From: Paenibacillus sp. FSL K6-1330
Lineage (GTDB): Bacteria > Bacillota > Bacilli > Paenibacillales > Paenibacillaceae
Length of the DNA: 64,000 nucleotides
Reading direction: 5' to 3'
Assembly (NCBI RefSeq): GCF_037976825.1
Contig: NZ_CP150269.1
Span: 6,089,501 to 6,153,500 of the forward strand
Below, piece by piece: positions 5,085-24,893 of this stretch (position 1 is the stretch's first letter; each line of letters begins with the position of its first letter). The notes beneath the pieces were generated by a model. That model was not told the DNA's origin and searched no databases. It was given only the letters and a program-made list of their open reading frames with translations. The position numbers and the translations under genes are program-made.

Positions 5085-5130
5085 AAAAACCAAAGGCCCC
5101 TTTAAAAATTAGGGTACGCCTTTGGTTTTC
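5085..5130 (-). terminator. Rho-independent terminator after FHA gene copy 1
   Basis: Inverted repeat AAAACCAAAGGC / GCCTTTGGTTTT followed on the minus strand by a T-rich run. It separates the FHA gene from the small membrane protein. The equivalent copy is at 17190-17236. Confidence 0.75.
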
Positions 5131-5206
5131 TGCAATAATTCGAATTCTCTCTAAACTCATAGAATAATAGCTTCGCAAATCTTACTTCTACTATAATAAT
5201 CCCGTA

Positions 5207-6976: not shown

Positions 6977-7139
6977 CAGTCATCTTATTGTTCCTGGACT
7001 ATTCATCTAATGGCTTTAACATTGCTATCAAGACACTAAGTGTACTAACGATTATCACATGTGTTTTTGGATTGATCCGGCATAGAGAATTGAAATAAGC
7101 GGTTCATATTCATATTGACTCACACAGGGCCCTAGGATG

Positions 7140-7370
7140 CTGCCTAAGGGCTTTATTTGTTTTCAACCGCCAACTTTGGCGGGTCATGTTAAAGGTCTCG
7201 TCGATTGGATGACAGCCCTACGAATGGAGTGATTACTAATCACGTCATATCTGGGTGTCACTTGGTGACATTCCATTAGACCTTCTGAATCAAAAGGTCA
7301 GGAATCTACAATAGTTCAGACATGGTGAATCGCCATATCCGAAAACTCTCAAGGAGATGTATTGAACACA
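7140..7370. other. Structured element with nested hairpins, possible RNA or intron remnant
   Basis: Dense short perfect inverted repeats: CCGCCA/TGGCGG at 7167-7182, GTGATT/AATCAC at 7229-7243, TGTCAC/GTGACA at 7256-7270, ATGGTG/CGCCAT at 7322-7336. The second and third hairpins are enclosed by AATGGA (7223) with TCCATT (7272) and by GGTCT (7194) with AGACC (7278). The latter also pairs with AAGGTC at 7294, giving two exclusive folds. No reading frame survives here. It could be a group II intron domain I remnant, a regulatory RNA, or a replication or transposition structure; the strand is not certain. Confidence 0.4.
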
Positions 7371-7394
7371 CACCCTTTCAGTAGCCCTCAAGTT

Positions 7395-7640
7395 GACGGT
7401 AACTGAAATTCAGATTTGGTATAATCCCAAAACCGAAATCAGTTTAACCATATACAAATTACGGACAGATGTACATCTCATGAGTATAATTTTGCACGAC
7501 CATTGGTCGCCTTGAAAGATGTTGCAGAAGCAATCGGTGAATCCAAATTTGGATTTTCCAAAGTCACGATTCGTTACAATAGCGTTGGACACATCGTCCA
7601 ACAACAAAAAAAGAACCAGGACTTTAAGTGTTGATCCTCT
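7395..7640 (+). pseudogene. Degenerate coding remnant, unknown
   Basis: Two short protein-like stretches in different frames follow one another: one containing EIQIWYNPKTEISLTIYKL, then one containing RPLVALKDVAEAIGESKFGF up to a TGA near 7636. Neither has a start with a ribosome site. They look like a decayed gene with a frameshift; no family was recognised. Confidence 0.25.
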
Positions 7641-7668
7641 TCAATGTTACAACAGCAATGTAATACAT

Positions 7669-7818
7669 TTAAGGAATTAGAAATTGAGTCAAGCCTATTA
7701 AAAATTGTACAAGCCATATGACAACGATGGTAATAAGGACAATTTTGATTATCCTCCATTTTTTTTCTTGGGAAGCCACTCGTTTCTCTAAATTACTTAA
7801 TCGTTGTTCATGATCCAT
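7669..7818 (-). CDS. 49-residue single-TM protein
   Basis: Short frame with a textbook ribosome site: AAGGAGG, 9 nt, then ATG at 7818. The product begins MDHEQRLSNLEKRVASQEKK (a charged, heptad-like helix) and ends in one TM helix (IIKIVLITIVVIWLVQFLIG). The architecture matches the 61-residue proteins at 4752 and 16866, though the sequences differ. It may be a holin-like or accessory membrane peptide; function is unknown. Confidence 0.6.
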   Translation of the reverse strand: MDHEQRLSNLEKRVASQEKKWRIIKIVLITIVVIWLVQFLIGLTQFLIP

Positions 7819-7842
7819 AATAGCATTCCTCCTTTGTTATAC

Positions 7843-7888
7843 AATATTAAACTACCACCTAGATTATGCAAGGTGGCAGTTTAATATT
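7843..7888. terminator. Palindrome, probable terminator
   Basis: An 18-bp near-perfect inverted repeat (AATATTAAACTACCACCT and its complement) with a 10-nt loop and T-rich flank, between the secreted protein gene and the 49-residue protein gene. It probably ends the secreted protein's transcript. Confidence 0.5.
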
Positions 7889-7927
7889 TTTATAGAAAAT
7901 AGAATCTCATAGAAAGCGTGAATTATC

Positions 7928-8677
7928 TTATGTCGTCCATCTCATAGAAAATGATTGAGGTCTTGAAATAATTTCTTCGCCAATGCCGCCTCCACCAATT
8001 ATTGATAGAGTTCTAACTCCCTTGATAATTATTTGTGCTGTTCGTCCGTTAACATTGGCAGTTGCATTAGTCGCAGCCCGATCATGCTGCCAAGAGTTGC
8101 CAGGGTGGAAACCCAATAGTGAGCTTGAGCTGTCAGTAACACTGACTATGTTCCAGTTGCCAGCACTATCATGTCTGTTAAAACTCACAGTAGCTGAAAT
8201 CCAAGAAAGGTTTGCACCCGCAGCCAGTCCATCTCCCCAAACTGTCTGTGTAACGCTATCAGTTACAATAGCCATAGGACTAATCTGATTAGATGATCCT
8301 TCAAAAGTTTGATTAGATGCAATAGTTTGATTATTGTTATCAGAATAATATGTCAGTAAAGCTGCATATTCATCTAAATCATTTACAATTATTGCTCCGT
8401 TATCATATTGCATAGTGCTGGCTCTTCCGGTTTTCACTGGTGTAAATCCTGTATCTTTCAAAATATCTTCTTTTGATTGATACTTCCCTTTTGCAGCTTC
8501 AAAATACTCAGCTGGTATAACATCACGAACAGAGATTGTGTCTACCTCAGCAGGAACAATTACATCATTGATACTGGTAGATGAAACTTGGCTAGGACTA
8601 GCACTAGCACTAGCAACACCTAAAGAAGTGAACAACATTGCACTGGATAACAATAAAACTGCACTTTTCTTTAGCAT
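7928..8677 (-). CDS. Secreted protein of unknown function
   Basis: 249 aa with a clear Sec signal peptide (MLKKSAVLLLSSAMLFTSLG, then ASASAS for cleavage). AGGAGG lies 7 nt before the ATG. The mature part is rich in Ser, Thr and Asn, with two VIPAE repeats near 40-56 and a C-terminal half that looks like a beta-rich fold (WGDGLAAGANLSWISATVSF). The gene stands alone with its own promoter region and terminator in the AT-rich island. Family not recognised; an extracellular effector or antimicrobial protein is possible, but nothing proves it. Confidence 0.7.
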   Translation of the reverse strand: MLKKSAVLLLSSAMLFTSLGVASASASPSQVSSTSINDVIVPAEVDTISVRDVIPAEYFEAAKGKYQSKEDILKDTGFTPVKTGRASTMQYDNGAIIVNDLDEYAALLTYYSDNNNQTIASNQTFEGSSNQISPMAIVTDSVTQTVWGDGLAAGANLSWISATVSFNRHDSAGNWNIVSVTDSSSSLLGFHPGNSWQHDRAATNATANVNGRTAQIIIKGVRTLSIIGGGGIGEEIISRPQSFSMRWTT

Positions 8678-8833
8678 ACAAAATCCTCCTAATTTGTTAA
8701 TATAATGGATACAATTAAAACGTTACCATAAATAATGGAATATTGTCTATTATTCTAGCAATTTATGTAACAAAAACAAATAATAGCTGGTAAATATGTA
8801 ATAAAATTATAATTACAAAAATAAGTAATATGA

Positions 8834-9076
8834 CGATTACGGAAAGAGTTTAAAACAGATGGTTTAAATAATACTGTTAATGAACGGAAAATCACTCCTT
8901 ACAAATTATCTAAAGATACAGGAGAACGAATAGGCACCATATACAAACTTGTAAATAATCAAGACTTGAACAGTGTACGGATACCAGCGTCATTAATTGT
9001 CAACTTATGTAGTTATCTTGATGTCACTCCAAACGATTTGTTCGAAGTCAGAGTTAATAGCAGTGACGATGTATAA
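8834..9076 (+). pseudogene. Remnant of a small Cro/CI-type HTH regulator (YozG-like)
   Basis: An open frame of 81 codons without any usable start codon. It contains ERKITPYKLSKDTGERIGTI and then LCSYLDVTPNDLF, which is the pattern of short XRE repressors of the YozG type. The beginning of the protein is lost and a stop (TGA at 8831) lies just upstream. It is the only plus-strand gene-like stretch in the island, probably a decayed phage- or element-type repressor. Confidence 0.5.
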
Positions 9077-9106
9077 GGTAGTCTTACACTGGAACGACGA
9101 CTAAGT

Positions 9107-9140
9107 AAAAAAGACTCCCCAGTTGTGGAGAGTCTTTTTT
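9107..9140. terminator. Bidirectional terminator
   Basis: AAAAAAGACTCCCC and GGAGAGTCTTTTTT form a hairpin with A and T runs on both sides, between the HTH remnant (+) and the hypothetical gene (-). Confidence 0.8.
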
Positions 9141-9168
9141 ACTTTACAACTTATTTCATATACGAAAT

Positions 9169-9879
9169 CTACATTTCATCACTATTTAAAGCCTTGTTAA
9201 GCTTTATCTTTCTCCATGCATCCTCAACCGTGTTATTAATTAATCGAGAGTTAACATTAGACAAGTCAAAGTTACTTCCCGAGCGAAGCAAATCATAAAC
9301 AAACCCTCTTCGAGAAGGGGAGTTTGTACATTTTTTAAAGTCATTGTTATCGATTAAAAAATCATAAAGTTTATTTAGTTTAACTTCAGAATCCGATTTT
9401 TTTCTATTGTAATTTTCTTCTTTTGCTTCCTCAATTTCCTCGTTGTGTTCTACAAACAGCATTTCCAGAAAATCATCCTTGTCTTCAAAAAGTAACATTG
9501 AATTTCTATGATGGTAAGTATAAATAATACCCTCGTTTTGAAAGTACAAACTTATAACCTGTTCTTTACCGACATGTTTCTCAAGTTGCTTTAAAGCGTT
9601 ATTATAGTCTTTAATTTTTTCTTTGATTTGCTTATTGCTGTTAACGTACTCAAGATTATAGTTTAAATCCTCATCGGTGATTAAATTATTCTCGATTTCA
9701 CTCTCATCCAATATATTCAGATCGTATAAAACTACATTGACTCCTAAATCATTCAATAATGCGCAAAAGGTGCCATAATCATAAATAACAACATCTTCTC
9801 GCTCACAATATACTTTGTAACTATTTATGCTATGTGATTCAAAAAATCCGGTTATATCTTTGAAAGACAAATAGTCCAT
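9169..9879 (-). CDS. Hypothetical protein, island gene
   Basis: 236 aa from the ATG at 9879, chosen because AAGGGAG lies 6 nt upstream. Acidic and Asn/Lys-rich, no signal peptide or TM helix, so probably cytoplasmic. The central region (KQIKEKIKDYNNALKQLEKH) is coiled-coil-like. No family recognised. It is strongly AT-rich, unlike the genes outside the island, which points to acquisition. Last gene of the minus-strand series before the terminator at 9107. Confidence 0.6.
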   Translation of the reverse strand: MDYLSFKDITGFFESHSINSYKVYCEREDVVIYDYGTFCALLNDLGVNVVLYDLNILDESEIENNLITDEDLNYNLEYVNSNKQIKEKIKDYNNALKQLEKHVGKEQVISLYFQNEGIIYTYHHRNSMLLFEDKDDFLEMLFVEHNEEIEEAKEENYNRKKSDSEVKLNKLYDFLIDNNDFKKCTNSPSRRGFVYDLLRSGSNFDLSNVNSRLINNTVEDAWRKIKLNKALNSDEM

Positions 9880-9923
9880 TACAATCTCCCTTTTAATCAA
9901 CCTTGCATTTCATTATAAATACA

Positions 9924-10526
9924 CTACCAAAGTTCCATAACTTGTCCATACTCTTTAACTTCAGGATACATCTTGTCAATCGTAGATGCACCCAATACAG
10001 ATTTTATTAAATGCTCTTCTGGCTTAAACTTAGGTGCGTCAACCGTTATCTGAGTTACCCTATGGTCCCCACTCATAATGCCAATCGTTACAGTCTTTGC
10101 TCCTTTTATATCATCCTGTTGAAGAAAATCATATGCCTGAGTAAATACATGTTGTGTCGCTAAACCTGGTTTTACAGAGTCTTTCATATGTACCACTAGA
10201 TCAATATGCTCCGTTATATCTCTCGAATCGGTTACATCTACTTTCATAGCGTAAGCAAAAACAGAGGTATCTATTAAGGATTCATCTTCTTCACTATCTA
10301 TAATGGTGAGTGCTTCTTCCTCCGTGCTTTCTTCGTCGTTTCGTATGCCTTCTTCTTGCTCATTGGATTTTGTCTCACTCTGATCGTCTTGAGACTCGAC
10401 ATTCGCAACAACTGTTTCATTAGTAGTTTCGCTCGGTGCTGCTGAAGGAGACGCCTCATTAGAACAAGCCTGTAAAACCAAAGTAAAAGCAAAAAGAGAT
10501 GCAACTAAAGTAATCTTTGTTTTCAT
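9924..10526 (-). CDS. Putative lipoprotein, unknown function
   Basis: 200 aa with a lipoprotein signal (MKTKITLVASLFAFTLVLQA before Cys), so it should be anchored outside the membrane. Residues 22-85 are a low-complexity acidic, Ser/Thr-rich linker; the C-terminal ~110 residues form the folded part. GGGGGAAG lies 7 nt before the ATG. A copy of the 19-bp inter-gene motif (10557-10576) lies upstream, so this may be the last cassette of the array. Family not recognised. Confidence 0.7.
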   Translation of the reverse strand: MKTKITLVASLFAFTLVLQACSNEASPSAAPSETTNETVVANVESQDDQSETKSNEQEEGIRNDEESTEEEALTIIDSEEDESLIDTSVFAYAMKVDVTDSRDITEHIDLVVHMKDSVKPGLATQHVFTQAYDFLQQDDIKGAKTVTIGIMSGDHRVTQITVDAPKFKPEEHLIKSVLGASTIDKMYPEVKEYGQVMELW

Positions 10527-10574
10527 TATGGTACTTCCCCCATATGTTTCTTTCTAAGTAAAACATGCCTTTTA

Positions 10575-11081
10575 TCAAAAAATCTTTATTCCTTCTAAAA
10601 GCTTTGTTTTTATTTCCTCTGAAACGAACGAAAATACAGAGGTATGTAATTCAGATGCTTGCTTTTGTATGTGTGCTTTTTGGTCATCACTGAGGCAATA
10701 ATTATACTTTTTTATCAATCTTTCAATTTTAGATCTCCTTGCGATGAACTCCTCTTCCGATTGGCTTTTGATTTTAAGAAAGTCAACCCAATCTAGGCTT
10801 TGCCTTTGATTGTTACACTGCTTACATGATAATGCGATATTCCCCCAAGCATGCAATCCAGCATGGTCCTTGTTCATGGGAACCAAGTGATCTTTATCCC
10901 ACTGTTTGTTGTTAAGATTCTCATTACAATAACAACATTTATATTCAAAAAACAGTATAAGATCAAATTTGCTTTTGTTATCACTAAAAGGCTTGAATCC
11001 CCTTGTTAAATCATACTGCTTCCCTATTTCTCTTAGCAACTTTCGCACTGCTTGACTTGCAGCTTGTGACGGGGATGACAC
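10575..11081 (-). CDS. HNH endonuclease
   Basis: 168 aa. The HNH core is near residues 48-95: CCYC, then DKDHLVPMNKDHAG, then WGNIALSCKQCNNQR. The two CxxC pairs bind structural zinc, and the His in DHLVP is the catalytic base in this family. It resembles stand-alone HNH proteins of defence islands. The start is GTG at 11081 with AAGGGA 11 nt upstream. It is flanked on both sides by the 19-bp motif. Role (restriction, toxin effector or homing) not decided. Confidence 0.8.
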   Translation of the reverse strand: MSSPSQAASQAVRKLLREIGKQYDLTRGFKPFSDNKSKFDLILFFEYKCCYCNENLNNKQWDKDHLVPMNKDHAGLHAWGNIALSCKQCNNQRQSLDWVDFLKIKSQSEEEFIARRSKIERLIKKYNYCLSDDQKAHIQKQASELHTSVFSFVSEEIKTKLLEGIKIF

Positions 11082-11121
11082 TCTGTCTCACTTCCCTTTG
11101 AAGTAGCCATTTTAACTGAAT

Positions 11122-11361
11122 TTATTTTCTGGTAATCCTATTTGCTCTTTTCTTCTTAACTTCTGTGCTAGTGCTAAATAAATAACTATCGCCTTCATGG
11201 GACCACGGCTTATCATTATCAATACTAAAATTAACAGTGTCCCAGCAACGTTCAGGGATTAATTCGGAACATCTTTCTTGAACATAGGCAGCCGCTTCTT
11301 TAATACTGGTAAATTCCTTAAAGAGGATTTTGTTTTTGTATAGTCTCACGTTGTAACCCAT
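11122..11361 (-). CDS. Small hypothetical protein, island cassette
   Basis: 79 aa from the ATG at 11361, 8 nt after AGGAG; the GTG at 11370 overlaps that site and is unlikely. Starts MGYNVRLYKNKILFKEFTSI, followed by a helix with conserved-looking aromatic and charged residues, ending in a Lys/Arg-rich tail. No family recognised. Motif copies lie on both sides. Confidence 0.5.
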   Translation of the reverse strand: MGYNVRLYKNKILFKEFTSIKEAAAYVQERCSELIPERCWDTVNFSIDNDKPWSHEGDSYLFSTSTEVKKKRANRITRK

Positions 11362-11401
11362 TAATTTCACTCCTAGGTAAAACAGTCATTTGATTAAGTT
11401 A

Positions 11402-11674
11402 CTATCTTTTTGAAGTGAAAAGTCGTTTATGTTGCGTCGAATATAAGTGGTTTAGTCGAGAATTTTTTTTTATATATCTCGAAATAGTCTGTGTGACTTT
11501 AGAATGCAATTCCCCATCCGCTTCTAGGATAAAATAATCTTTATTTACTTCCAGCAATTTGATTTGAAATTTTTTATTGGTGTAACGTTTTATCGCCTCT
11601 TCAATTTCGTTCTTATCGTCTTCAGTAAAGCTCAGTGTAGGATTAAAAATATATAACTTATAACTCTGAATCAT
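11402..11674 (-). CDS. Small hypothetical protein, island cassette
   Basis: 90 aa, starting MIQSYKLYIFNPTLSFTEDD, basic C-terminus. AAGGTGGG lies 7 nt upstream of the ATG. The alternating pattern suggests a small alpha/beta domain. No family recognised and no catalytic motif visible. Bounded by motif copies at 11375 and 11689. Confidence 0.5.
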   Translation of the reverse strand: MIQSYKLYIFNPTLSFTEDDKNEIEEAIKRYTNKKFQIKLLEVNKDYFILEADGELHSKVTQTISRYIKKNSRLNHLYSTQHKRLFTSKR

Positions 11675-11707
11675 TCTCTATCCCACCTTATAAAAATAGT
11701 TATTTGA

Positions 11708-12319
11708 TCAACTGAGTACTGGATCTAAAACTACAATACCATCAATCTCCTCAAGAAGTTGCGAATTTGCATTTTTCATAAATCGTTTATATGATGTTCC
11801 TTTACTTAATAAGACAACAACATCAGAAAGTTTAAATGTCATATCTCCCTTCACTCTCCACTCTCTTTCATGTGTCCAATCTGTTATATTCTCTGCATTT
11901 CCAAGATGAAAATCAACAATACGCCACCATTCTTCTTCAGGAAGGAACTTCTTAGCTTTTATCGAAGATTCATATATGACAGGTCTGCCGCCCTTATGGA
12001 AAATTGTTTTCTTTTTAAATCCAATTCCGACAGGTTGGTAACGAATTTTCCCACCAAGATCTTCCCTATAGTTTTGCTCATAGAGAGTATTTTGACAGAG
12101 AGCATGCACAGGCACATCCTGAAAGCATACTGCTGGACTGTCACCAACAATAAATCCCGAATCGGTAGTACTTCCAATAAGCTTCTTGTCATTCAAAATT
12201 TTAAGTAGTACTTCACTTGCTGACATTGTTTTTGTTTTCTTCGTTAGATGAAAGACATAAGTGCTCATATCTGAACGATGTCGCATCCTATGTCTCCACT
12301 GATCTATTGAATAACCCAC
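11708..12319 (-). CDS. Hypothetical protein with a THEREWR motif, possible DUF2971/ART-like fold
   Basis: 203 aa. Features: YVFHLTKK near the N-terminus, GDSPAVCFQDVP, GGRPVIY and DWTHEREWRVKGD near residues 147-160. The HEREWR motif with an early His and a GRPVIY strand recalls DUF2971-like proteins and, more distantly, the H-Y-E type of ADP-ribosyltransferase folds. This is only a motif-level guess. GTG start with a weak ribosome site (GAG at 10 nt); the Met at residue 18 is another option. Confidence 0.5.
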   Translation of the reverse strand: MGYSIDQWRHRMRHRSDMSTYVFHLTKKTKTMSASEVLLKILNDKKLIGSTTDSGFIVGDSPAVCFQDVPVHALCQNTLYEQNYREDLGGKIRYQPVGIGFKKKTIFHKGGRPVIYESSIKAKKFLPEEEWWRIVDFHLGNAENITDWTHEREWRVKGDMTFKLSDVVVLLSKGTSYKRFMKNANSQLLEEIDGIVVLDPVLS

Positions 12320-12419
12320 TTTTTTATCACTCTTTTCTTATGAAATAAACCTTTCATAATGATGAGTACCTGTTACTGGTCATTTTCATCTCCTGATCAA
12401 ATGTACGTTTTATCATCTT

Positions 12420-12791
12420 TTATTCGAATAAAGCTTTCTTTGTGACTTCCACCAATAAAGCCTTTGCCATTTCAAAAGGTAAACTTAGAAAGTCCATTCC
12501 TTTCTTCTTAGCTATTTCTTTCGCCTTATTGACAACAACCTCATTTCTAGCTGCATCAAGGAAATCGTGGCCTTTCCAAGTCATATTTTTAACATAGATT
12601 ACATACGGATTGAGGGTTCCTTTAGCTTCAACGTAACCAGCATCTTTTAAAATTTTCACTTGGTATTGTACCATCTCTCGTTCTTCTTCTGTTTCGTACC
12701 CCTCAATTTCTACCACAATGTTGTTAGTTGCCGTATTATGTTCTTCAATATACTTTAAGACCTTGATAATTAAGTCCATATCGCGCTTCAT
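12420..12791 (-). CDS. DUF2513 domain protein
   Basis: 123 aa from the ATG at 12791, preceded by AAAGGGGTG. Hallmarks: MKRDMDLIIKVLKYIEEH at the start, YQVKILKDAGYVEA, then TWKGHDFLDAARN near the middle, and a helical C-terminus. This matches DUF2513, a winged-helix-like family common in prophages, plasmids and mobile islands. Its function is unknown; a DNA-binding regulator is plausible. Confidence 0.8.
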   Translation of the reverse strand: MKRDMDLIIKVLKYIEEHNTATNNIVVEIEGYETEEEREMVQYQVKILKDAGYVEAKGTLNPYVIYVKNMTWKGHDFLDAARNEVVVNKAKEIAKKKGMDFLSLPFEMAKALLVEVTKKALFE

Positions 12792-12822
12792 TTGAACACC
12801 CCTTTCTTTTAAAATATTTGTT

Positions 12823-13041
12823 TTATTTTCTTTTGAATAAAACAATTGATGAGTTTTTGTTCTCATTCTTTAAATACTCCCCATTGTATCGATAAGTGTA
12901 CACATACATCTTCCCATCTACAAATGTGCATTTATGAGGATTACCTCTATCAGTGATCTTAATCTGGTCTTCTCTTGGATAAACATTTACTTCATTAAGC
13001 ATCTTAAACAAAAAAGGCTTTATTTCAGTCAGTAGGTCCAT
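12823..13041 (-). CDS. Small hypothetical protein, island cassette
   Basis: 72 aa, MDLLTEIKPFLFKMLNEVNV..., with a central beta-rich stretch (CTFVDGKMYVYTYRYNGEYL). GGAAGG before the ATG. The stop codon TAA forms part of the 19-bp motif at 12808. No family recognised. Confidence 0.5.
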   Translation of the reverse strand: MDLLTEIKPFLFKMLNEVNVYPREDQIKITDRGNPHKCTFVDGKMYVYTYRYNGEYLKNENKNSSIVLFKRK

Positions 13042-13071
13042 GAATTTTTACCTTCCGTTAAAAGATTCGTT

Positions 13072-13335
13072 TTATCGCTTTCTAGGATTATCATTATTGA
13101 TTAGTTCCTCTACAGTCCATCTCTCATGCGGGTTGTAAGTTCGCCCTGGTTTAATACATACTTGCTCAATTAAGTCCGTTAATTGGAATCCATGTCTAAG
13201 CTTATGCAGCCCTAACTGCCTCCTACATTCAGCTATCCCGCCTCTTCTCATGCCTTTAATTACATGAATAAAGTCACCGTCAGCCAAAATGTAGTCCCCT
13301 GAATTGCGTTCTCCAGTGATTGTAGGTATATTCAT
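13072..13335 (-). CDS. Small hypothetical protein, island cassette
   Basis: 87 aa from the ATG at 13335 (AAGGATGG upstream); a longer form from 13347 would place the ATG directly on the ribosome site. Contains GDYILADGDFIHVIKGMRRG and a basic end. No family recognised. Its upstream junction is the one place in the array where the 19-bp motif is not recognisable, so it may have entered together with the nuclease-like gene upstream. Confidence 0.5.
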   Translation of the reverse strand: MNIPTITGERNSGDYILADGDFIHVIKGMRRGGIAECRRQLGLHKLRHGFQLTDLIEQVCIKPGRTYNPHERWTVEELINNDNPRKR

Positions 13336-13362
13336 AAAAAACACCATCCTTAATTAGGGCAA

Positions 13363-13836
13363 CTACATCAACCCAAATCCTTCTACAATTTTTGATAATT
13401 CTTTCGGACATTCAATTTGAATAATTTTCTCAGAATTGACCCATAATCGAATAACTCCTAATTTATCTAGAGATAGAGATACGTCGTTGATTATTTTTCG
13501 TATTCTAGAAATATCGGGATTAGCTAGTGCCAAAAAGGTCGTATCAGACTTAGAATCGAGCTGCTTCATAAGATAATATATCTGAGCACTCGCATGTACT
13601 TTTAACTGTCCACTATGGAACACATTCTCTGTTTGATTGTTTCTTCTAGATCCTTTTGACTCAATAATTAATGAGTAGCCATTCAATTCAGCATGTACAT
13701 CAAATCCCTGTTCTTTGTCTATGGCTATTCTTAATATGTTGGCTCCTCTTTTTTTAAGGTACTCAGCAACTGCTAGGTTTACTTCATTCTCGGTCATTGA
13801 GAAGGTGTCCGGACTTTTACTTATCGGGATAGGCAT
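13363..13836 (-). CDS. PD-(D/E)XK nuclease-like protein
   Basis: 157 aa from the ATG at 13836 (GGAG 9 nt upstream). The motif EVNLAVAEYLKKRG ... GFDVHAELNGYSLIIESKGS gives the Glu, Asp and ExK residues of the PD-(D/E)XK nuclease fold, and FHSGQLKVHASAQ supplies the usual Q/H helix. This suggests a restriction-type or effector nuclease, or a recombination endonuclease. No partner methylase is present nearby. Confidence 0.65.
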   Translation of the reverse strand: MPIPISKSPDTFSMTENEVNLAVAEYLKKRGANILRIAIDKEQGFDVHAELNGYSLIIESKGSRRNNQTENVFHSGQLKVHASAQIYYLMKQLDSKSDTTFLALANPDISRIRKIINDVSLSLDKLGVIRLWVNSEKIIQIECPKELSKIVEGFGLM

Positions 13837-13946
13837 ACAACTCAACTCCAAGGATTTATTTCTTATGAAAGGCTAATTTTATCTGTTGTTCGATTGTTCA
13901 TAATCATTAATTCTTGTAATAATATAATCAAAAAGCATGATACATC

Positions 13947-14669
13947 TTATTGAATTGACTTTATAGCCATATGTTTATCTGCTCCATGCAGAATTGCATG
14001 CCGACTCAGTGGATATTCTATATCTTTGCCATGTTCAAATGAACTAAGAACGTGGGACAAATAAAACAATAGAATATGTTCATCAAAACTAAGAATGCTG
14101 GTTTCGTTTAGTAGAGTTTTTGCAGTTTCTTTGATTTTATTTTGAGATATATAATCACTACCATCGCACCTCTCAGCAATTATTCCTTCAAGTTGAGGTA
14201 GTAATGTAGAAATAGCAGCATAATATCTTGAATCATTATGGGACAGTATAGCTTCTTCGAGAATTGGCATTCGATCAGAGAGCCAATTCATCTTCCTCCA
14301 GTCAGTTTTCATTTCTTGAATTACTTCACAAGTGAAAAAATCCTCAACAAATTCAGTAATTAGGGCAGATGTTTCTTGAAGAGTATGATTCTTCGCATGA
14401 AGTCCAATTTCTTTCATTTTTCTAGTGTCAATATAATCATGCGGTGGAAAGCCGCTATCATACATTGCCTTCTTAAAACTAGCAATACCCTTCTCAGTTT
14501 CTTCATTAAAAATGTAAGACTGAGGCTTAACCAAGGTAGCTTCTTCAATGGCCTTCTGTAGACGATGATATGTACCTGTGTAGTCTGTTGTGTTTTTGAT
14601 TGTGATTATTGCATCTTGTATGTAGTCAAACGGTTTAAAATTTTGGAAGGTTTCATTATTTTCTTTCAT
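13947..14669 (-). CDS. HEPN-like protein (RHAILH motif), 3' end frameshifted
   Basis: 240 aa as it stands. Near the C-terminus is RHAILHG, an Rx4H motif typical of HEPN ribonuclease domains. The frame stops after GADKHMAIKSIQ, but the other frame continues smoothly as TYGYKVNSIRCIMLFDYIIT and ends at 13879, exactly within the 19-bp motif. Adding one A to the AAA run near 13979 restores a ~262-aa protein. So the last helix is lost through a one-base deletion (or a sequence error). AGGAGG precedes the ATG. Probably an RNase-type toxin or abortive-infection factor. Confidence 0.65.
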   Translation of the reverse strand: MKENNETFQNFKPFDYIQDAIITIKNTTDYTGTYHRLQKAIEEATLVKPQSYIFNEETEKGIASFKKAMYDSGFPPHDYIDTRKMKEIGLHAKNHTLQETSALITEFVEDFFTCEVIQEMKTDWRKMNWLSDRMPILEEAILSHNDSRYYAAISTLLPQLEGIIAERCDGSDYISQNKIKETAKTLLNETSILSFDEHILLFYLSHVLSSFEHGKDIEYPLSRHAILHGADKHMAIKSIQ

Positions 14670-14701
14670 TTGTATTCCTCCTAATGTTCTTTATAAAAGA
14701 C

Positions 14702-15268
14702 TCATTTTAAAGCATTAAGCTTTTCAATTGCATATTGATCGGCTATCACTTCGAAGGGATGTTCGCGATATTTTTTATGAAACAGGGTTAAATTGTTAAA
14801 AAATTCATCCGACCCCTGCTCAGACATTTTAATTAGTTTCTCTAACTCACCCAATTCTAGTTTTGACATTTCAGCATTGTAGTCTGAATTAAATTCATTT
14901 CCACTTAAACCTCTCGATGCATATCTTGTCTGAAAATCAAACCAATGACCTAATTCATGTAAAATGGAAAAAACGGCATATAATTCAGGATCAATAGGTT
15001 CATTATTGGCGAGAAGATGGTTTCTCCGCAATAAATTTTCAACTCCAGAAAGTATGCATGGATCATCTGGTATAGCTTGATGCAAAACCGTAATTGAGTC
15101 TTCTACTGCAATTTCCGGAATAACGATGCCAGCTTTATAGTTTCCTTTTCCTTCAGGCCAGAAAGCAGGAGTTGGTTGCCTTTTTGCGTTTATTAAAGTG
15201 GAGACTGGGATTTCTTGATAGAAGATGCCATCGGGTATTATCAATCTTGCAATATCTATTAACATCAT
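14702..15268 (-). CDS. Zinc metallopeptidase, ImmA/IrrE-like
   Basis: 188 aa. HELGHW at residues ~107-112 is the HExxH zinc site, and HPFEVIADQYA near the end gives the third ligand (Glu) as in ImmA/IrrE-type peptidases. Cytoplasmic, no signal peptide. In known systems such peptidases cleave XRE-type repressors; a broken XRE gene lies two genes upstream (15959-16635), which fits but does not prove a pair. GGGAG about 10 nt before the ATG. The stop codon is inside the motif copy at 14691. Confidence 0.7.
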   Translation of the reverse strand: MMLIDIARLIIPDGIFYQEIPVSTLINAKRQPTPAFWPEGKGNYKAGIVIPEIAVEDSITVLHQAIPDDPCILSGVENLLRRNHLLANNEPIDPELYAVFSILHELGHWFDFQTRYASRGLSGNEFNSDYNAEMSKLELGELEKLIKMSEQGSDEFFNNLTLFHKKYREHPFEVIADQYAIEKLNALK

Positions 15269-15333
15269 ATGTTTAACGCTCCCATTCTTGATGAAAGAAT
15301 TGTTTTATTACCATCTATGTAATGTCGTTATTT

Positions 15334-15834
15334 TCACGACAACACTTCGTTGATACGCCGCTCGGAAAATATCCACTCCGGTGGAATCAAGTCATCAGGG
15401 TATTGTGCCTTAGTCCACACCTTGTTTTCCCTTAGCACGGTATCTCCAGTGCCATTGCGCGCTTTTTTCATTAAATCAGCTACTTCAGACGGTGTTGCTA
15501 TATAAACTCTGGGCATCTCATTAATTTGGACACCTTTGAATTGAACAAGGCTAAATATAGTTTTCTTAGAGTGCTTGAGTAGCCATGAATCAATTGCCTC
15601 ATGATAACTAACACTTTCACTCTTGTATCCTTGAGTTAGTCCCCAACCACCATCTCTACTTCCTTTTACCGATACTTTTATAATGCTTTCTCCTTTTGAT
15701 ACCATTAAGTCATACTCTGGTTGGTTTGCTCCATACTGAACAGAGACATCAAATCCAATTCTTGCAAATAAAAAAGCCGTAATGGACTCGGCTGCAACTG
15801 ATACATGCCATGAATTAACCAATATTGCTGTCAC
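15334..15834 (-). CDS. PD-(D/E)XK-like protein (variant motif)
   Basis: 166 aa. EYDLMVSKGESIIKVSVKGS near residues 50-70 resembles the D...(E/Q)xK core of the PD-(D/E)XK fold, with Ser in place of the usual Glu/Gln, so it may be inactive or a divergent member. GTG start at 15834; the ribosome site AAGGAG overlaps it, and a TTG 12 nt later is an alternative. First gene of the motif-separated array. Confidence 0.5.
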   Translation of the reverse strand: MTAILVNSWHVSVAAESITAFLFARIGFDVSVQYGANQPEYDLMVSKGESIIKVSVKGSRDGGWGLTQGYKSESVSYHEAIDSWLLKHSKKTIFSLVQFKGVQINEMPRVYIATPSEVADLMKKARNGTGDTVLRENKVWTKAQYPDDLIPPEWIFSERRINEVLS

Positions 15835-15958
15835 TCTCCTTTTGATAAAAGTATTATTTCACAGCACGTGTAGCTTCCCATATCTTTTTCACGGCTCCTT
15901 ATTTTTCTGGACAAGTTGACAATAGGTCAGAGATCCAAGCATAGGTCTCAGATCCATT

Positions 15959-16635
15959 TTATATCCTATTTATCCCTAATAGGTCATCTACAGACATATT
16001 GTGTAGTTTTGAAAGTGAAATTATTGCTTCAAAATTAGGCTCTCTTAATCCAGTCTCATAGTCATCCTGCTGACATTAAGGTATTCAGCAACCTGCTCAC
16101 CCGTTAAGCCTTTCTTCTTTCGATAGTAACGAAGTTTAACACCAATTTTTTGGGCATTGGTCATTTCTTTAGGTTGCTCACTTGCATCTATCTTCATTTC
16201 CATTGGTTCGATATCATCATTAGACGTATCAAGTGTAGCGCCTTTGGCTTTTTCTGCAATAATTCTGAATTTTTCTCTAAACCCATTAAAAATGATTTCT
16301 GTTTCTTCTTTGGATGCTCCCCAAAGATCCCAATATTGCAATGCAAATTCTTTAAATAAAACCGCTTCATTAATTGTCGCTACTCCAAGTATTTCTGCCA
16401 TAAGGGCAGGTGACTTTATTTGTTTCATTATATCCTTATAAATTTCACTAAGTCTTTCAACAGCAAATTCTCCTTTAAGCTCTTGGGAATAACTCATATC
16501 CGGTATAACTGCCATTATTTCAAATCTATTAGCTTCCTTATTATTAGATACAATCTTATTATCTTCTAAAAACATAATTTGAATCATTTCTATACCAGTA
16601 AGTATTTCCCCTTGAATATTGGCTTCGGTAGCCAA
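15959..16635 (-). pseudogene. XRE-family protein with an extra N-terminal domain, frameshifted in the HTH
   Basis: Reading starts at the TTG at 16635 (GGAG upstream) and gives ~155 residues of an unrecognised alpha/beta domain, then an XRE helix-turn-helix: IGVKLRYYRKKKGLTGEQVA and EYLNVSR. There the frame breaks (stop at 16045). The other frame continues as DYETGLREPNFEAIISLSKL and ends at 15959. About 10 nt are missing between the HTH helices. The gene starts directly after the FHA fragment, so it marks the right-hand edge of the island. Confidence 0.65.
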
Positions 16636-16664: not shown

Positions 16665-16857
16665 ATATAAACCCCTGCGCAGGATAAACGACCATCCGGC
16701 ATTAATAAAGATCTCCCCCATCGTAGGGTATTCTTTATAAGGGACCATGGACTCCCCTTTAACACCGTACCGTTTCTCGAACCCAGATCCTTCAGGACGT
16801 ACCACCGTTTACACTACGAAAGCTCGAGCCGGTAAAGTCCCTACGCCCTGAATATAG
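16665..16857 (-). pseudogene. 3' fragment of a third DUF6382-FHA gene copy
   Basis: About 190 bp clearly similar to the 3' ends of the two FHA genes (5207 and 17315), including the region for LGSRNGTMLKGE and MVPYKEYPL, but with deletions and frame changes. It lies directly downstream of the small membrane protein copy 2. It shows that the FHA/small-protein unit has been multiplied at least twice at this place. Confidence 0.8.
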
Positions 16858-16865: not shown

Positions 16866-17051
16866 TTAGCCAGTTAAATTAAATAGATACACCATTATCC
16901 CTACAAGCAAAGGTCCTATCACTAAAAACCCGAATATCAGGGCAATAACTTTTAGAGTTCCTGATATTCCTTTTGACGAGTTCAAGGTGTCTAGTTTATT
17001 ATTGATTTCTTTTAGCTCTTTCAATATTTCTCTATTTAGATCTTCAGACAC
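16866..17051 (-). CDS. Small single-TM protein with N-terminal coiled coil (copy 2)
   Basis: 61 aa, identical in sequence from the GTG start to the copy at 4752-4937; the start is again 8 nt after AAGGAGG. It follows the complete FHA gene after a terminator, which fits the original gene order; the other copy is the displaced one. Single TM anchor with a charged helical head. Function unknown; position suggests a link to the Tad/FHA system. Confidence 0.7.
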   Translation of the reverse strand: MSEDLNREILKELKEINNKLDTLNSSKGISGTLKVIALIFGFLVIGPLLVGIMVYLFNLTG

Positions 17052-17189
17052 ATCAAAGTCCTCCTTATACATATGAACAAAAAACAAGATGTTTTTTCAA
17101 TTAATCGTTAACATATACAAAGTTATTAGTTAATCGGTACATTTTACCATAATCATCATACCAGATGTTTCTATATATCTAGTAAAAAT

Positions 17190-17314: not shown

Positions 17315-19177
17315 TTAATATAAACCCCTGCGCAAGGTAAACTCCCATCCCGCAATAATAAAGACATCCCCCTCCATCAGAGGGTATTCTTTATAAGGCA
17401 CCATGGACTCCCCCTTCAACATCGTGCCATTTCTCGAACCCAGATCCTTCAGTACGTAACCTCCGCCTTCACGCGAAAGTTCGACATGTGCCCGTGAAGT
17501 CCCCACTCCCTGTGCGACGAATTGGGCTACGTCAGGGGACCGGCCGATAATGAAATGGGGCTGATGCAGTTCAATCCGCTGGGGGGTAACTGCATTCGGT
17601 TCGTTTAGCTCGAGGTAAGCACCTGCTGAATGTTGCACGCCTGGACGGGCTGCGGCATCCGGACTTAGCAGCACGGTAGCCCCCCCGCCTCCAGGGACCG
17701 AAAGCACCTCCGTCCGTTGGGCCAACTGGGCATAATAATCCCCCTCCTCCCCATATGGATCCGCAGTCGCAGCTGCTGCCTCAGATGAACGCGAATAAGC
17801 ATGGCCCTGCGGAGACTGTGCAGGATATCCCGCTGAATGGTGATCTCTCTCGGAGTTAACTGGAGATTTAGGGACCCGCCATCTCCAATTCTCTTTTCCC
17901 TCCTCAAGCTCTGCTTCTGCTTTTCCGGCGTCTGTTTCCGAGTTATCCCCAAGAAGCCCCGATAAAGGATCCGCCTGAAAACGTGGGACGGACTTCCACT
18001 TGGAATGCTCCTGCGGGCTAAGCTCTGTTGACTCGAACATGGGCAGGGAACCGGACCAATCGCCGGATCTCCGTGATAGCAGCTGAAGTTTACCTGTCCA
18101 GCCAAGCCAGGTTACTGCAGCAAGCAGAATCGTAATCCCAACCGACAACCCCAACATCAGTGAAGTAGGCTGATTCATGTAAAGTAATCTCCAAGCTCCC
18201 GCTGCGGCGAGCAAACATCCTAATAAAATATAGGTGCGAAGAGGCGAAGTCTTGTCATTGTCCGAAGCTTCTGAATTTGTATCATCCGTATCAGGCAGCC
18301 ACGAGGGAGTGGAACCCAAAGGGCTTCGACCCACATGAGAATTCGTTTCCTCGCTCTTGCCCCTCTTCCCAAACATCTCATTGGTACGCTCAGTCAGACC
18401 TCGGATTAAACTCTGTTTATCCGTGTTGATGTCACTCTCCGTCTGCGGCACTGCAGTCCGCCCGCGAGCCGGTTCTGTAAATGCGAATGCAGGCTTGGAG
18501 CCCATGTTGCTTGATTGACTACCGGTATAGAGCGATCCTTGATTCAAACCTGAAGACACTGCTGCATTTGCTTGAGTTACAGCACGATGGTCTTCACCCT
18601 CTCCTGCTAACAGGTCGACCACAAGCTTCTTAAGTCCCGGCAGATTGAAGCTCTGTTCACTGCAAAACGACATCAGTGCCTGTATCCCTCCCCCTTTTAG
18701 CTCCGTCACCGATGCGAGCAACCTTGTCATTAGCTCTTTGAGCATAACTGGAAGACGTGTGCCGCCTGCTTCGGTAGCTGCAACGGGAACATACGTTAAA
18801 TATAAAGTGCCAAGATCCAGGGAACCTTCAATAAACAGATAATCCTCATGAAGTATGTAATTCTCCGGCTGAAGCATATACAGCTTGCTGTCCTCCAGAG
18901 CGGTGACGATTTGCAGCAGCAATCCAAAATATTCGGTCAGCGTCATTCGCTCGCTCTTTAACGCTTGAGACAGCATTTTTTTGCCGGTGATATCATACTC
19001 CAGCGTTACCTTATAATCGACTTCTTTCATATGCAGCTTCAAGAAATGAGGGATTCTCGAAGAACGGATCATTCCCAGCTGTACATGATTAAGTTCTGAT
19101 GATTGGATTCCTTCAGCCCGGTCCAGCACCATAATGGTTCCACCATTCTGCATAAAATCCGCCTTTAATCCGAGCAT
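17315..19177 (-). CDS. DUF6382 and FHA domain protein, Tad-operon copy
   Basis: 620 aa from the ATG at 19177, behind AGGAGG. Domains: short leader, DUF6382-like region (~30-190), Ser/Thr/Asn-rich linker, two TM helices near 310-360, linker, and a C-terminal FHA domain with GRSPD, SRAHVEL and LGSRNGT. FHA domains read phosphothreonine, so it may link a Ser/Thr kinase to pilus assembly. It follows the prepilin peptidase gene by 13 nt and closes the Tad operon. It is the complete version of the gene duplicated at 5207. Confidence 0.9.
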   Translation of the reverse strand: MLGLKADFMQNGGTIMVLDRAEGIQSSELNHVQLGMIRSSRIPHFLKLHMKEVDYKVTLEYDITGKKMLSQALKSERMTLTEYFGLLLQIVTALEDSKLYMLQPENYILHEDYLFIEGSLDLGTLYLTYVPVAATEAGGTRLPVMLKELMTRLLASVTELKGGGIQALMSFCSEQSFNLPGLKKLVVDLLAGEGEDHRAVTQANAAVSSGLNQGSLYTGSQSSNMGSKPAFAFTEPARGRTAVPQTESDINTDKQSLIRGLTERTNEMFGKRGKSEETNSHVGRSPLGSTPSWLPDTDDTNSEASDNDKTSPLRTYILLGCLLAAAGAWRLLYMNQPTSLMLGLSVGITILLAAVTWLGWTGKLQLLSRRSGDWSGSLPMFESTELSPQEHSKWKSVPRFQADPLSGLLGDNSETDAGKAEAELEEGKENWRWRVPKSPVNSERDHHSAGYPAQSPQGHAYSRSSEAAAATADPYGEEGDYYAQLAQRTEVLSVPGGGGATVLLSPDAAARPGVQHSAGAYLELNEPNAVTPQRIELHQPHFIIGRSPDVAQFVAQGVGTSRAHVELSREGGGYVLKDLGSRNGTMLKGESMVPYKEYPLMEGDVFIIAGWEFTLRRGLY

Positions 19178-19190
19178 AAGCTCCCCCCTC

Positions 19191-19703
19191 CTACAAGTGC
19201 AGTACCACATACGTGCTGATTACACCAGGAAGGACAGCAATCATAAAGGGGAATCGCAAGTGTTCCTCCTGGCTATTGCGCCATGGTAACCAGCTCTTCA
19301 TAACAAAAACGCCGGCGATACTGCCAACGACATTGCGTATTCGCTTCATCGTTTCCCGCCGCCAGAGCAGGATGAGCAAACCGATGACACCGGCAAAAAT
19401 TACAGAATACATGATGCCCTGCAAGGTAAACCATAAACCGGTCCAGGCACCAATCCCCCCAAACAGCTTAACGTCACCCGCTCCCACAGCCCCTATAAAA
19501 TACATGATCAACAAGATAAGAAACCCTGCTCCAAGACCCTGCAAAGAAAAGAACAGCCCCTCCCACCCGTCCAGAACGCCATAATAGACAGGACCGGACA
19601 GCATAGCAGAAACGGTTAAAACATTCGGTATTTTCATGGAACGAAGATCTGTAATGAATGCCGCGATCAGATAAACGGCACAAACAACAAAAGCAACGGC
19701 CAT
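19191..19703 (-). CDS. Prepilin peptidase, TadV/CpaA type
   Basis: 170 aa integral membrane aspartic protease of the A24 family. Catalytic Asp residues are in FITDLRSMKIPN (near 19) and GAGDVKLFGG (near 77). It would process the Flp-like pilin and the TadE-type pseudopilins encoded upstream. The short form without the N-methylation domain is typical of Tad systems. About 185 bp separate it from the TadE-like gene. Confidence 0.9.
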   Translation of the reverse strand: MAVAFVVCAVYLIAAFITDLRSMKIPNVLTVSAMLSGPVYYGVLDGWEGLFFSLQGLGAGFLILLIMYFIGAVGAGDVKLFGGIGAWTGLWFTLQGIMYSVIFAGVIGLLILLWRRETMKRIRNVVGSIAGVFVMKSWLPWRNSQEEHLRFPFMIAVLPGVISTYVVLHL

Positions 19704-20875: not shown

Positions 20876-20892
20876 TCAAAGTACCCCTAATC

Positions 20893-23124: not shown

Positions 23125-23126
23125 GA

Positions 23127-24878: not shown

Positions 24879-24893
24879 GCCCGCCTCACCTCC

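What the first reader, a model, noticed from the sequence alone, without database searches (positions are those of the whole stretch)
10557..15861. Cassette-like gene array separated by a conserved 19-bp motif, without an integrase
Twelve gapless copies of TAAAAyGAnTnTTTTATnn lie in one orientation at nearly all junctions of a run of small, unrelated genes. Several copies differ at only two of 19 bases (TAAAATGAGTCTTTTATAA and TAAAATTAGCCTTTCATAA). The motif is tied to the gene ends: it often contains the stop codon and leads into the next ribosome site. The genes it separates are typical defence or toxin types (HNH, PD-(D/E)XK, HEPN-like, ImmA/IrrE-like, DUF2513). Same strand, one gene per unit, a shared short boundary and decaying members recall integron cassettes, but no integrase or attC is present. 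The motif may be a recombination site for an unknown enzyme, or a shared operator or RNA-processing site.
Basis: partly seen in the sequence, partly recalled or inferred. Interest (0 to 1): 0.82.

Follow-up and report, generated by a model that had tools for sequence, protein, structure and literature searches.

The report
Phage gene slots with unique addresses
A row of small genes is divided by short DNA signs that share their ends but each carry their own six-letter address, and the same addresses recur in the same order in SPbeta-type bacterial viruses while the genes between them differ, which looks like a natural plug-in socket system for swapping viral genes.

Summary
Twelve of 13 gene junctions in 9169-16045 carry a site; there are 13 sites. 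The site is not one fixed 19-bp motif but two inverted arms, [A/g]T[A/g]AAA and TTT[T/c]A[T/c], around a free 6-bp core. Twelve of the 13 window cores recur in a ~150-kb SPbeta-like prophage of P. dendrobii, in two runs of the same order (shuffled mean 1.6).

Ten SPbeta-like records carry 39-102 such sites (reversed control 5-15). Shared cores are mostly colinear: 37 of 37 between two phages whose DNA beside those sites is unrelated. In seven phages (581 sites) no core is repeated (14 expected) or palindromic (13 expected). Among eight Bacillus SPbeta phages, 216 of 1316 homology breakpoints fall on sites (15 expected). Arm differences lie mostly on the replaced side, which places the exchange between the arms.

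I read this as address-coded, slot-specific gene exchange of SPbeta-like phages, probably run by a phage tyrosine recombinase (candidate YomM, Xer-like). The window array is a phage-derived relic at an FHA locus. The enzyme is inferred. Integrons and plain operators are rejected; short-homology recombination is the main rival.

The parts
15846..15861 (-). site, core TAATAC (block B, rank 48 of 82 in the P. dendrobii prophage)
15334..15834 (-). gene in slot TAATAC-CAATTC, PD-(D/E)XK-like (weak Pfam hit, E 0.017, below cut-off)
   Evidence: a G137 homologue aligns to window 15341-15861, gene plus site, and sits behind the same core TAATAC
15292..15307 (-). site, core CAATTC (rank 49)
14702..15268 (-). 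gene in slot CAATTC-TGAGTC, HELGH motif (ImmA/IrrE-like by motif, no Pfam family)
14694..14709 (-). site, core TGAGTC (rank 50); overlaps the TGA stop of the upstream gene
13947..14669 (-). gene in slot TGAGTC-TTAGCC (240 aa, no Pfam family); a 40% identical protein lies in the G014 array
13866..13881 (-). site, core TTAGCC (rank 51)
13363..13851 (-). gene in slot TTAGCC-CGAATC (162 aa); no site before the next gene
13072..13347 (-). second gene in slot TTAGCC-CGAATC (91 aa)
13059..13074 (-). site, core CGAATC (rank 52)
12823..13041 (-). gene in slot CGAATC-CAAATA (72 aa)
12810..12825 (-). site, core CAAATA (rank 55)
12420..12791 (-). DUF2513 gene in slot CAAATA-CGTACA; same slot and gene at the FHA locus of G014
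12397..12412 (-). site, core CGTACA (not found in the P. dendrobii prophage, present in the G014 FHA array)
12341..12356 (-). site, core GGTTTA (block A, rank 23); no gene between it and CGTACA, fusion point of the two blocks
11708..12319 (-). gene in slot GGTTTA-TAACTA, AbiGi-like (PF10899, 25.3 bits, cut-off 22.4)
11692..11707 (-). site, core TAACTA (rank 24), one variant arm base
11402..11674 (-). gene in slot TAACTA-TGACTG (90 aa)
11378..11393 (-). site, core TGACTG (rank 25)
11122..11370 (-). gene in slot TGACTG-TGGCTA (82 aa)
11099..11114 (-). site, core TGGCTA (rank 26), one variant arm base
10575..11081 (-). HNH gene in slot TGGCTA-GGCATG (PtuB-like in PADLOC, 4e-10)
10559..10574 (-). 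site, core GGCATG (rank 27)
9924..10526 (-). lipoprotein-like gene (by my reading of its start) in slot GGCATG-TGCAAG (200 aa)
9897..9912 (-).
9169..9900 (-). gene after the last site (243 aa from the listed TTG start)

Best explanation
The sites are exchange points of an address-coded, slot-specific gene swapping system of SPbeta-like phages. Two inverted arms are bound by a common protein. The 6-bp core between them is the crossover (overlap) region and must match between partner sites. Because the cores inside one phage differ from each other and are asymmetric, recombination within a phage (deletion, inversion) is prevented. The same address in two co-resident phages can recombine, so a gene between two addresses is replaced in place and in the right orientation. 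Shown here by comparison: site anatomy, distinct cores, conserved order with unrelated genes between, breakpoints on sites, arms that go with their flank. Inferred: that the enzyme is a phage-coded tyrosine recombinase of Xer-like type with a 6-bp overlap (first candidate YomM, second YopP), and that it acts during co-infection or in poly-lysogens. The window array is a relic or transplant of two blocks of such a phage at an FHA locus; no recombinase gene lies in the window.
For: Symmetric arms around a core of little information in 579 sites. 64-102 sites per record against 8-16 in the reversed control for seven of eight IMG/VR records, which had been picked for holding known cores; in SPbeta and phi3T, not picked for sites, 39 and 40 against 6 and 5. 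Order: G015-G141 37 of 37 shared cores, G141-G146 71 of 71; largest permuted value in any pair 18. All 37 G015-G141 shared sites have neither 80-bp flank alignable; 24 of 25 testable intervals are unrelated. Slot TAATAC-CAATT[C/A] holds seven genes without mutual blastp hit in seven elements. Direct-repeat cores 0 against 14.2 expected, inverted pairs 1 against 12.8, palindromic cores 0 against 13.3 (581 sites, 7 phages; reached in 0 of 1000 shuffles each); control 6-mers show no such lack. Breakpoints: 216 of 1316 within 15 bp of a site centre, 15.4 expected, reversed-motif control 1, peak at the far site edge; junctions with a site have a breakpoint in 107 of 150 cases, without in 190 of 572. 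Of 170 one-side-homologous pairs in which both phages have a site, the core is identical in 143, has 1-2 changes in 19, differs in 8; arm differences 57 on the replaced side, 17 on the shared side. YomM: R-K-H-(K/R)-H-Y set kept in 8 aligned sequences, nearest solved chains XerC-like and XerA, found in 6 of 7 phages; the four genomes of 100 with strong YomM are all among the eight with the largest site excess.
Against: No enzyme was tested. G141 has no YomM hit, and three of the eight genomes with site excess (G035, G054, G068) have no clear YomM. YomM may only mark SPbeta-like phages. Laboratory phi3T-SPbeta hybrids cross over inside long shared blocks, where ordinary homologous recombination suffices. 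In the Bacillus phages the lack of repeats is weak (direct 1 against 3.9, P 0.10; inverted 2 against 4.3, P 0.21; palindromic 1 against 8.5, P 0.003). The phages of a set are related (G141 and G146 share 71 cores), so counts are not independent; over 361 distinct cores the palindrome lack is 0 against 7.7. Sites shifted by 100 to 500 bp still catch 9-27 breakpoints. In 113 further one-side-homologous pairs the other phage has no site by the rule (79 with a different sequence there, 23 with the same core, 11 with 1-2 changes). Two true single-slot swaps were found in Bacillus and three between G141 and G146. By a crude ORF caller 221 of 581 sites lie between a gene end and a gene start and 127 lie well inside an ORF. 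Some distant pairs are not ordered beyond chance.
Confidence: 0.63

Rival explanations
1. Short-homology anchors: the 16-18 bp sites are only islands of identity used by a phage annealing recombinase (for example the Sak4-like YorG) or by RecA; the shared arms have another job.
For: Identity runs through the whole site and stops at its edge. YorG-like proteins occur in some of these phages. Lab hybrids cross over in long homologous blocks. Avoidance of direct repeats also follows.
Against: Palindromic cores and inverted pairs are avoided too, which homology use does not demand. YorG was found in 3 of 7 phages. The arm differences place the exchange point between the arms. Sixteen bp is very short for such enzymes (general knowledge).
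Confidence: 0.23
2. Operators or stoperator-like sites of a phage regulator, with gene replacement happening around them by unrelated means.
For: Many sites, symmetric arms, shared cores read on the gene strand, upstream of ribosome sites.
Against: A spacer of an operator would drift; here many positions keep their own core although the DNA beside them is no longer alignable. The known SPbeta repressor site (SPBRE) is a different sequence: the 9-mer most shared by the ten MrpR-bound promoter regions is ATATGTATA, in nine of ten. Breakpoints fall on junctions with a site more than on junctions without.
Confidence: 0.07
3. Position-specific RNA or translation elements (processing sites, attC-like folded single strands).
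For: In 133 cases the upstream stop codon is the first three bases of the site; 342 of 581 sites have a ribosome-site-like motif within 36 nt, random positions 188 of 720. Weak complementarity of positions 2 and 15 (270 of 527 against 237).
Against: Only a short AT stem is possible (not folded with a tool); core positions 6/11 are less complementary than chance (148 against 176); breakpoints are a DNA phenomenon.
Confidence: 0.04
4. Integron-like cassette array captured by an unseen integron integrase.
For: Mostly one gene per unit, one orientation.
Against: No integrase in the window; cores do not repeat, whereas capture at one attI does not give ordered unique addresses.
Confidence: 0.02
5. 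Chance motif in AT-rich intergenic DNA.
For: The region is AT-rich (GC 0.36).
Against: 10 exact sites against 0.57 in shuffles; 12 of 13 cores shared with a prophage in two ordered runs.
Confidence: 0.01

Closest known systems
dif modules of Acinetobacter plasmids (XerC/XerD, pdif sites)
   Same: Gene modules bounded by short sites with two arms and a 6-bp spacer; [quoted passage not shown] Nearest solved relatives of YomM are XerC-like and XerA.
   Different: pdif has two different 11-bp arms, both orientations, repeated spacers, and uses XerC and XerD. Here the arms are mirror images of about 6 bp, shared cores are read on the gene strand, 39-102 sites per phage have (with one exception in Goe11) unique cores in a conserved order, and the enzyme is probably phage-coded.
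Integron gene cassettes
   Same: Mostly one gene per unit, one orientation, boundary tied to gene ends.
   Different: No integrase in the window, no common recombining core.
Engineered recombinase-mediated cassette exchange with heterospecific lox/FRT/att sites
   Same: Same arms, different non-crossing cores, exchange of the segment between two addresses (recalled; search listing only).
   Different: Natural, tens of addresses in one genome, conserved between phages.
SPBRE, operator of MrpR in SPbeta
   Same: Repeated intergenic element of the same phage; its reader has a tyrosine-recombinase fold (passages of PMC10516654).
   Different: Different sequence (ATATGTATA 9-mer), ten ChAP-seq peaks, MrpR has lost recombinase function.
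Phage boundary sequences (lambdoid linkers, PeSL of T4-like phages) and mycobacteriophage stoperators
   Same: Short intergenic elements at gene borders, proposed mosaicism points or one-way sites (recalled; the papers listed do not hold the PeSL term).
   Different: As recalled, no shared arms with a unique ordered core at each place.

Membership tests
Integron | integron integrase next to an attI site | tested here: not met
   No PF00589 match of the window's genome lies in the window; attI itself was not searched
Integron | attC sites sharing a common recombining core | tested here: not met
   Cores differ from site to site; only the arms are shared
XerCD dif module | 11-bp XerC and 11-bp XerD arms of different sequence around a 6-bp spacer | tested here: not met
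   Arms are mirror images, about 6 bp each, hardly any conservation further out except towards the ribosome site
XerCD dif module | exchange between sites with identical spacers | tested here: met
   Core identical in 143 of 170 one-side-homologous pairs where both phages have a site; comparative, not experimental
Tyrosine-recombinase cassette exchange | inverted arms around a 6-8 bp overlap | tested here: met
   Logo of 579 sites
Tyrosine-recombinase cassette exchange | crossover inside the overlap | tested here: met
   Arm differences 57 on the replaced side against 17 on the shared side in 143 identical-core pairs; indirect, places the exchange between the arms
Tyrosine-recombinase cassette exchange | cognate enzyme that binds and cuts the site | not testable with these tools
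   YomM is a candidate by conservation and residues only
SPbeta-like phage | SPbeta core genes together with the sites | tested here: met
   P. dendrobii prophage: yorL 59%, yorG 64%, yomM 61%, yopP/Q/R, yonF, yomI and others
SPbeta-like phage | the window array itself as a phage: SPbeta core genes in the window | tested here: not met
   Of 64 SPbeta proteins only a YopB-like HTH stretch matches, at 8864-9067 (34%, 5e-7)
SPBRE / MrpR operator | the SPBRE sequence | tested here: not met
   SPBRE target regions share ATATGTATA, not this site

The most novel reading that the evidence does not exclude
SPbeta-like phages build about half of their genome as an ordered rack of dozens of heterospecific recombination sites. 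Each carries a unique asymmetric 6-bp address that is conserved across phages, so a dedicated phage recombinase can swap any single gene between phages in place, without deleting or inverting anything. It would be a natural forerunner of multi-site cassette exchange and would explain the mosaic early regions of a classic model phage.
Probability: 0.6. Interest if true: 0.97.

Novelty: categorically new. Interest (0 to 1): 0.93.

Why it matters
Phage mosaicism is usually put down to rare illegitimate or homologous recombination sorted by selection (general knowledge). An ordered set of unique addresses kept while the genes between them turn over would mean that some phages evolve by directed, slot-specific gene exchange. 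It would give a job to an orphan tyrosine recombinase of SPbeta, make gene-by-gene exchange testable in B. subtilis 168, and offer a large set of natural non-crossing recombination sites. It also explains how blocks of defence-like genes can sit as an ordered array at a chromosomal locus.

Tried and rejected
Chance and AT-richness: rejected. Motif as a genome-wide operator of the host: own genome shows no excess. Motif as SPBRE: rejected, different sequence. Integron: rejected. FHA 3' end as the attachment site of the intact phage: no FHA match in the fetched P. dendrobii stretches, 154500-334400. Named phages holding the arrays by DNA: no match for two queries, one from the P. dendrobii array and one from the window. 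Lab hybrids as a test of crossover at sites: not decisive. RNA hairpin: not folded with a tool, put low on the anatomy only. The first listing of clean swaps gave five entries, three of which are a 22-bp interval that is nearly or fully identical in both phages; they are not counted. YomM as the sole enzyme: not settled. One search asked for 200 genomes and got 100, so genus-wide statements rest on 100.

Limits of the data: SPbeta 1-10000, SPR 40001-60000, BUCT082 20001-40000, Hyb3 after 120000 and G145 after 180000 were not fetched. Phages were analysed in 20-50 kb pieces, so sites and genes across piece borders are lost. G143 is the same prophage as G015 (82 of 82 cores shared) and was left out of the seven-phage counts. 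G144 (18 sites against 7) was not fetched. The reversed-control counts suggest that about one regex site in ten is a chance match in the large set (one in seven or eight in SPbeta and phi3T). The eight site-excess genomes are those with a difference of 25 or more from the control, a cut chosen after seeing the table.

Literature: searches listed no paper that, by title and abstract, describes this site system, and none on a function of YomM; only the top rows of each search were seen, and most subscription journals are not held. Papers seen: PMC10516654 (abstract and passages), PMC8270828 (passages), PMC13141974 (abstract and passages); the rest only as search listings.
Full report
WHAT IS IN THE WINDOW. 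The array lies on the minus strand. Between the genes 16045-16635 and 9169-9900 there are 13 same-strand junctions; 12 carry a site, 13 sites in all. With a fixed arm rule 10 are exact, against a mean of 0.57 and a maximum of 4 in 200 dinucleotide shuffles; with one arm mismatch allowed the contrast is only 16 against 7.9, so the three variant sites rest on their cores. The sites often hold the stop codon of the upstream gene and lead into the next ribosome site. The genes are a mixed set: HNH (PtuB-like in PADLOC), AbiGi-like and DUF2513, a weak PD-(D/E)XK hit, a HELGH-motif protein, a 240-aa protein without a Pfam family, small unknown proteins.

THE SITE IS ARMS PLUS A FREE CORE. One lay in a region of genome G015 with many more sites at gene junctions, beside a gene like SPbeta LigB. 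Fetched in pieces, it shows a ~150-kb SPbeta-like prophage with yorL, yorG, yosS, yopP, yopQ, yopR, yonF, yomI, yomG and yomM relatives. Of its 82 sites 75 lie in the early part up to 256.5 kb and 7 beyond. From 579 sites of seven such phages the logo is [A/g]T[A/g]AAA-N6-TTT[T/c]A[T/c]; further out there is little but a ribosome-site signal downstream. By a crude ORF caller 221 of 581 sites lie between a gene end and a gene start, 127 well inside an ORF; some of the latter must be chance matches.

ENRICHMENT. The pattern TVAAAN6TTTBA against its reversed control in eight IMG/VR records: 72/8, 69/12, 93/8, 64/8, 82/9, 18/7, 99/16, 102/13. These records had been picked because they held known cores. 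SPbeta and phi3T, not picked for sites, have 39/6 and 40/5. In ten further Bacillus SPbeta-group records, three of them lab hybrids, a stricter pattern gives 14-20 against 0-2. Of 108 viral stretches with the exact site TAAAAYGARTCTTTTAT, the weight matrix finds 170 sites in all against 13.5 in shuffles; in 53 stretches fetched with the reversed pattern 6 against 7 (the 170 include the 108 used as bait).

UNIQUE CORES IN A CONSERVED ORDER. None of the eight P. dendrobii/IMG-VR records repeats a core; in the Bacillus set one repeat occurs, in Goe11. Shared cores come in the same order: G015-G141 37 of 37, G141-G146 71 of 71, G015-G146 38 of 39, G015-G142 19 of 20; the largest permuted value in any pair was 18. 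Some more distant pairs are not clearly ordered (G145-G015 5 of 10, G142-G140 3 of 5). Cores shared in the opposite orientation number 0-5 per pair. SPbeta and phi3T share 26 in order, but these two phages are also alike in much of their DNA. The 13 window cores: 12 occur in the P. dendrobii prophage against 1.57 expected (largest of 5000 shuffles 7), 0 in reverse complement. Their ranks run 48, 49, 50, 51, 52, 55 and then 23, 24, 25, 26, 27, 28. So the window array is two colinear blocks in swapped order, fused at 12341-12412 where two sites stand with no gene between them. Taken as one list the window gives only 6 of 9 in order, no better than the permuted maximum, because of that swap.

THE GENES BETWEEN ARE NOT CONSERVED. 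For G015-G141 all 37 shared sites have neither 80-bp flank alignable, and 24 of 25 testable intervals are unrelated. For G141-G146, 33 of 49 intervals are homologous and 16 unrelated. The slot TAATAC-CAATT[C/A] holds seven genes without mutual blastp hits in seven elements; one end is CAATTA in G039 and has a variant arm in G140. Now and then one gene family sits in different slots (68% identical 60-aa proteins in G139 and G140; DUF2513 in G140; a 57% pair in G015 and G141). The sites are the fixed skeleton; the genes are the variable part.

EXCHANGE HAPPENS AT THE SITES. In eight Bacillus SPbeta-group phages, all ordered pairs, 216 of 1316 unique homology breakpoints lie within 15 bp of a site centre; site density predicts 15.4; the reversed motif catches 1, shifted sites 9, 10, 17 and 27. 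The peak is at the far edge of the site. Breakpoints are unique per phage, so one event can count in several phages. Compared with other same-strand junctions, those with a site have a breakpoint in 107 of 150 cases, those without in 190 of 572 (Fisher odds ratio 5.0, P 4e-17). Sites well inside reading frames have one in 13 of 102, the others in 166 of 271. In the window, the DNA match of DUF2513 to G014 runs from 12383 to 12826, that is from 14 bp beyond one site to the edge of the next, and that of the PD-(D/E)XK gene to G137 from 15341 to 15861, where its site ends; the G137 gene sits behind the same core TAATAC with one variant arm base. Three other matches to array genes (G039, G013, G135) end inside the genes. 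Clean single-slot swaps with both flanks kept: two in Bacillus (492 for 239 bp; 329 for 274 bp; 368 intervals tested) and three between G141 and G146.

THE EXCHANGE POINT IS BETWEEN THE ARMS. I took site pairs in which one flank is homologous and the other is not, without asking for the same core. Of 283 such pairs in both groups, both phages have a site in 170: the core is identical in 143, has 1-2 changes in 19 and differs in 8. In the other 113 the second phage has no site by the rule (79 different there, 23 same core, 11 with 1-2 changes). In the 143 pairs the four variable arm positions differ 57 times on the replaced side and 17 times on the shared side. So arm differences go with the neighbour gene and the core is common. 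A first, less strict count of 284 pairs was bimodal: 172 with no core mismatch, 17 with one, 11 with two, 84 with three to six.

RULES OF THE CORES. Against column-shuffled cores in seven phages (581 sites): direct repeats 0 against 14.2, inverted pairs 1 against 12.8, palindromic cores 0 against 13.3, reached in 0 of 1000 shuffles each. Random 6-mers and 6-mers at four fixed offsets show no such lack. The phages are partly related; among 361 distinct cores none is palindromic, 7.7 expected. In the Bacillus phages the same holds more weakly (1/3.9, 2/4.3, 1/8.5; only the last is significant). Direct repeats would allow deletion, inverted ones inversion, palindromic cores both; all are avoided. 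This is what a set of non-crossing, oriented recombination sites needs.

THE ENZYME (INFERRED). SPbeta integrates with a serine recombinase, SprA (passage of PMC8270828). It also codes for three proteins of tyrosine-recombinase type: MrpR/YopR, which has lost recombinase function and binds SPBRE, YopP, and YomM. YomM is found in 6 of 7 phages, at 58-62% identity in four and 31-33% in two; YopP in 7 of 7 at 27-30%. YomM keeps Arg, Lys, His, Lys or Arg, His and Tyr at the usual places (placement by my reading of the alignment). Pfam's catalytic family PF00589 reaches its cut-off for the P. dendrobii YomM but is not listed for SPbeta YomM. The nearest solved relatives of the G139 YomM by sequence are a XerC-like protein and XerA; Xer sites have a 6-bp spacer (passages). 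In 100 genomes the four strong YomM genomes are all among the eight with the largest excess of sites; a fifth, G025, has a weaker YomM relative. Against: G141 has none, and G035, G054 and G068 have sites in excess without a clear YomM. The window genome and G014 have no YomM by the SPbeta query and only weak general matches by the other, so their arrays would be frozen unless a phage supplies the enzyme.

ORIGIN OF THE WINDOW ARRAY. The array lies among copies of an FHA/DUF6382 gene and its 3' tail (5207-6976, 16665-16850, 17315-19210). A second species, G014, has an array with mostly different genes but the same order of shared cores at its FHA locus, also beside an FHA tail fragment. Of 64 SPbeta proteins only a YopB-like HTH stretch matches the window (8864-9067), so no phage is left there. 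How the blocks came to the FHA locus is open. The intact P. dendrobii prophage shows no FHA gene in the fetched stretches around it.

VERDICT. Observation confirmed and extended. Best reading: address-coded, slot-specific gene exchange in SPbeta-like phages, with a relic array in the window. The site system and its use as an exchange boundary I hold at about 0.9; the tyrosine-recombinase mechanism at about 0.6.

Noticed in passing
window 16665-16850, 17315-19210, 5207-6976; L053 3191-3445 and 14517-16271: Repeated 3' ends of an FHA/DUF6382 gene beside both chromosomal arrays; the locus looks like an insertion hotspot, but no PF00589 recombinase lies in the window.
   Followed up: partly
window 16866-17087: 73-aa ORF with a weak Fst toxin (type I toxin-antitoxin) hit between two FHA tails.
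   Followed up: no
L008, L010, L016 (G039, G069) and L007 (G038): A nearly palindromic copy TAAAACGATTGTTTTATAA recurs in three genomes; in G039 it follows what I read as a lysis-type gene pair. Whether it belongs to the ordered set was not tested.
   Followed up: no
L017 (G054:C1:4415000-4427000): Site-like sequences between what I read as phage tail genes, in a genome with 78 strict sites against 25 control but no clear YomM; perhaps another phage group with the same site type.
   Followed up: no
L056 (G039:C1:5094000-5113900): Array with an RNA-ligase-like gene and genes that I read as Thg1-like and kinase-like (labels recalled) in slots TAATAC-TTAGCC, with a 116-aa tyrosine recombinase fragment at the locus end.
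   Followed up: partly
G139/G145 against G015/G140/G142/G146: Two YomM subtypes (31-33% and 58-62% to SPbeta YomM), one with HxxR and one with HxxK in box II, on phages that still share addresses.
   Followed up: partly
SPBc2 76171, 99498, 129297: Sites lie in the upstream regions of aimR, yorE and yosX, which MrpR also binds at SPBRE; a link between exchange sites and lysogeny control was not examined.
   Followed up: no
Hyb2 (MT366947) 104632, 106012, 119045: In lab phi3T-SPbeta hybrid Hyb2 the shared blocks in which crossovers lie have sites at their edges.
   Followed up: partly
window 8864-9067: A YopB-like helix-turn-helix stretch (34% to SPbeta YopB, 5e-7) just beyond the end of the array.
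   Followed up: no
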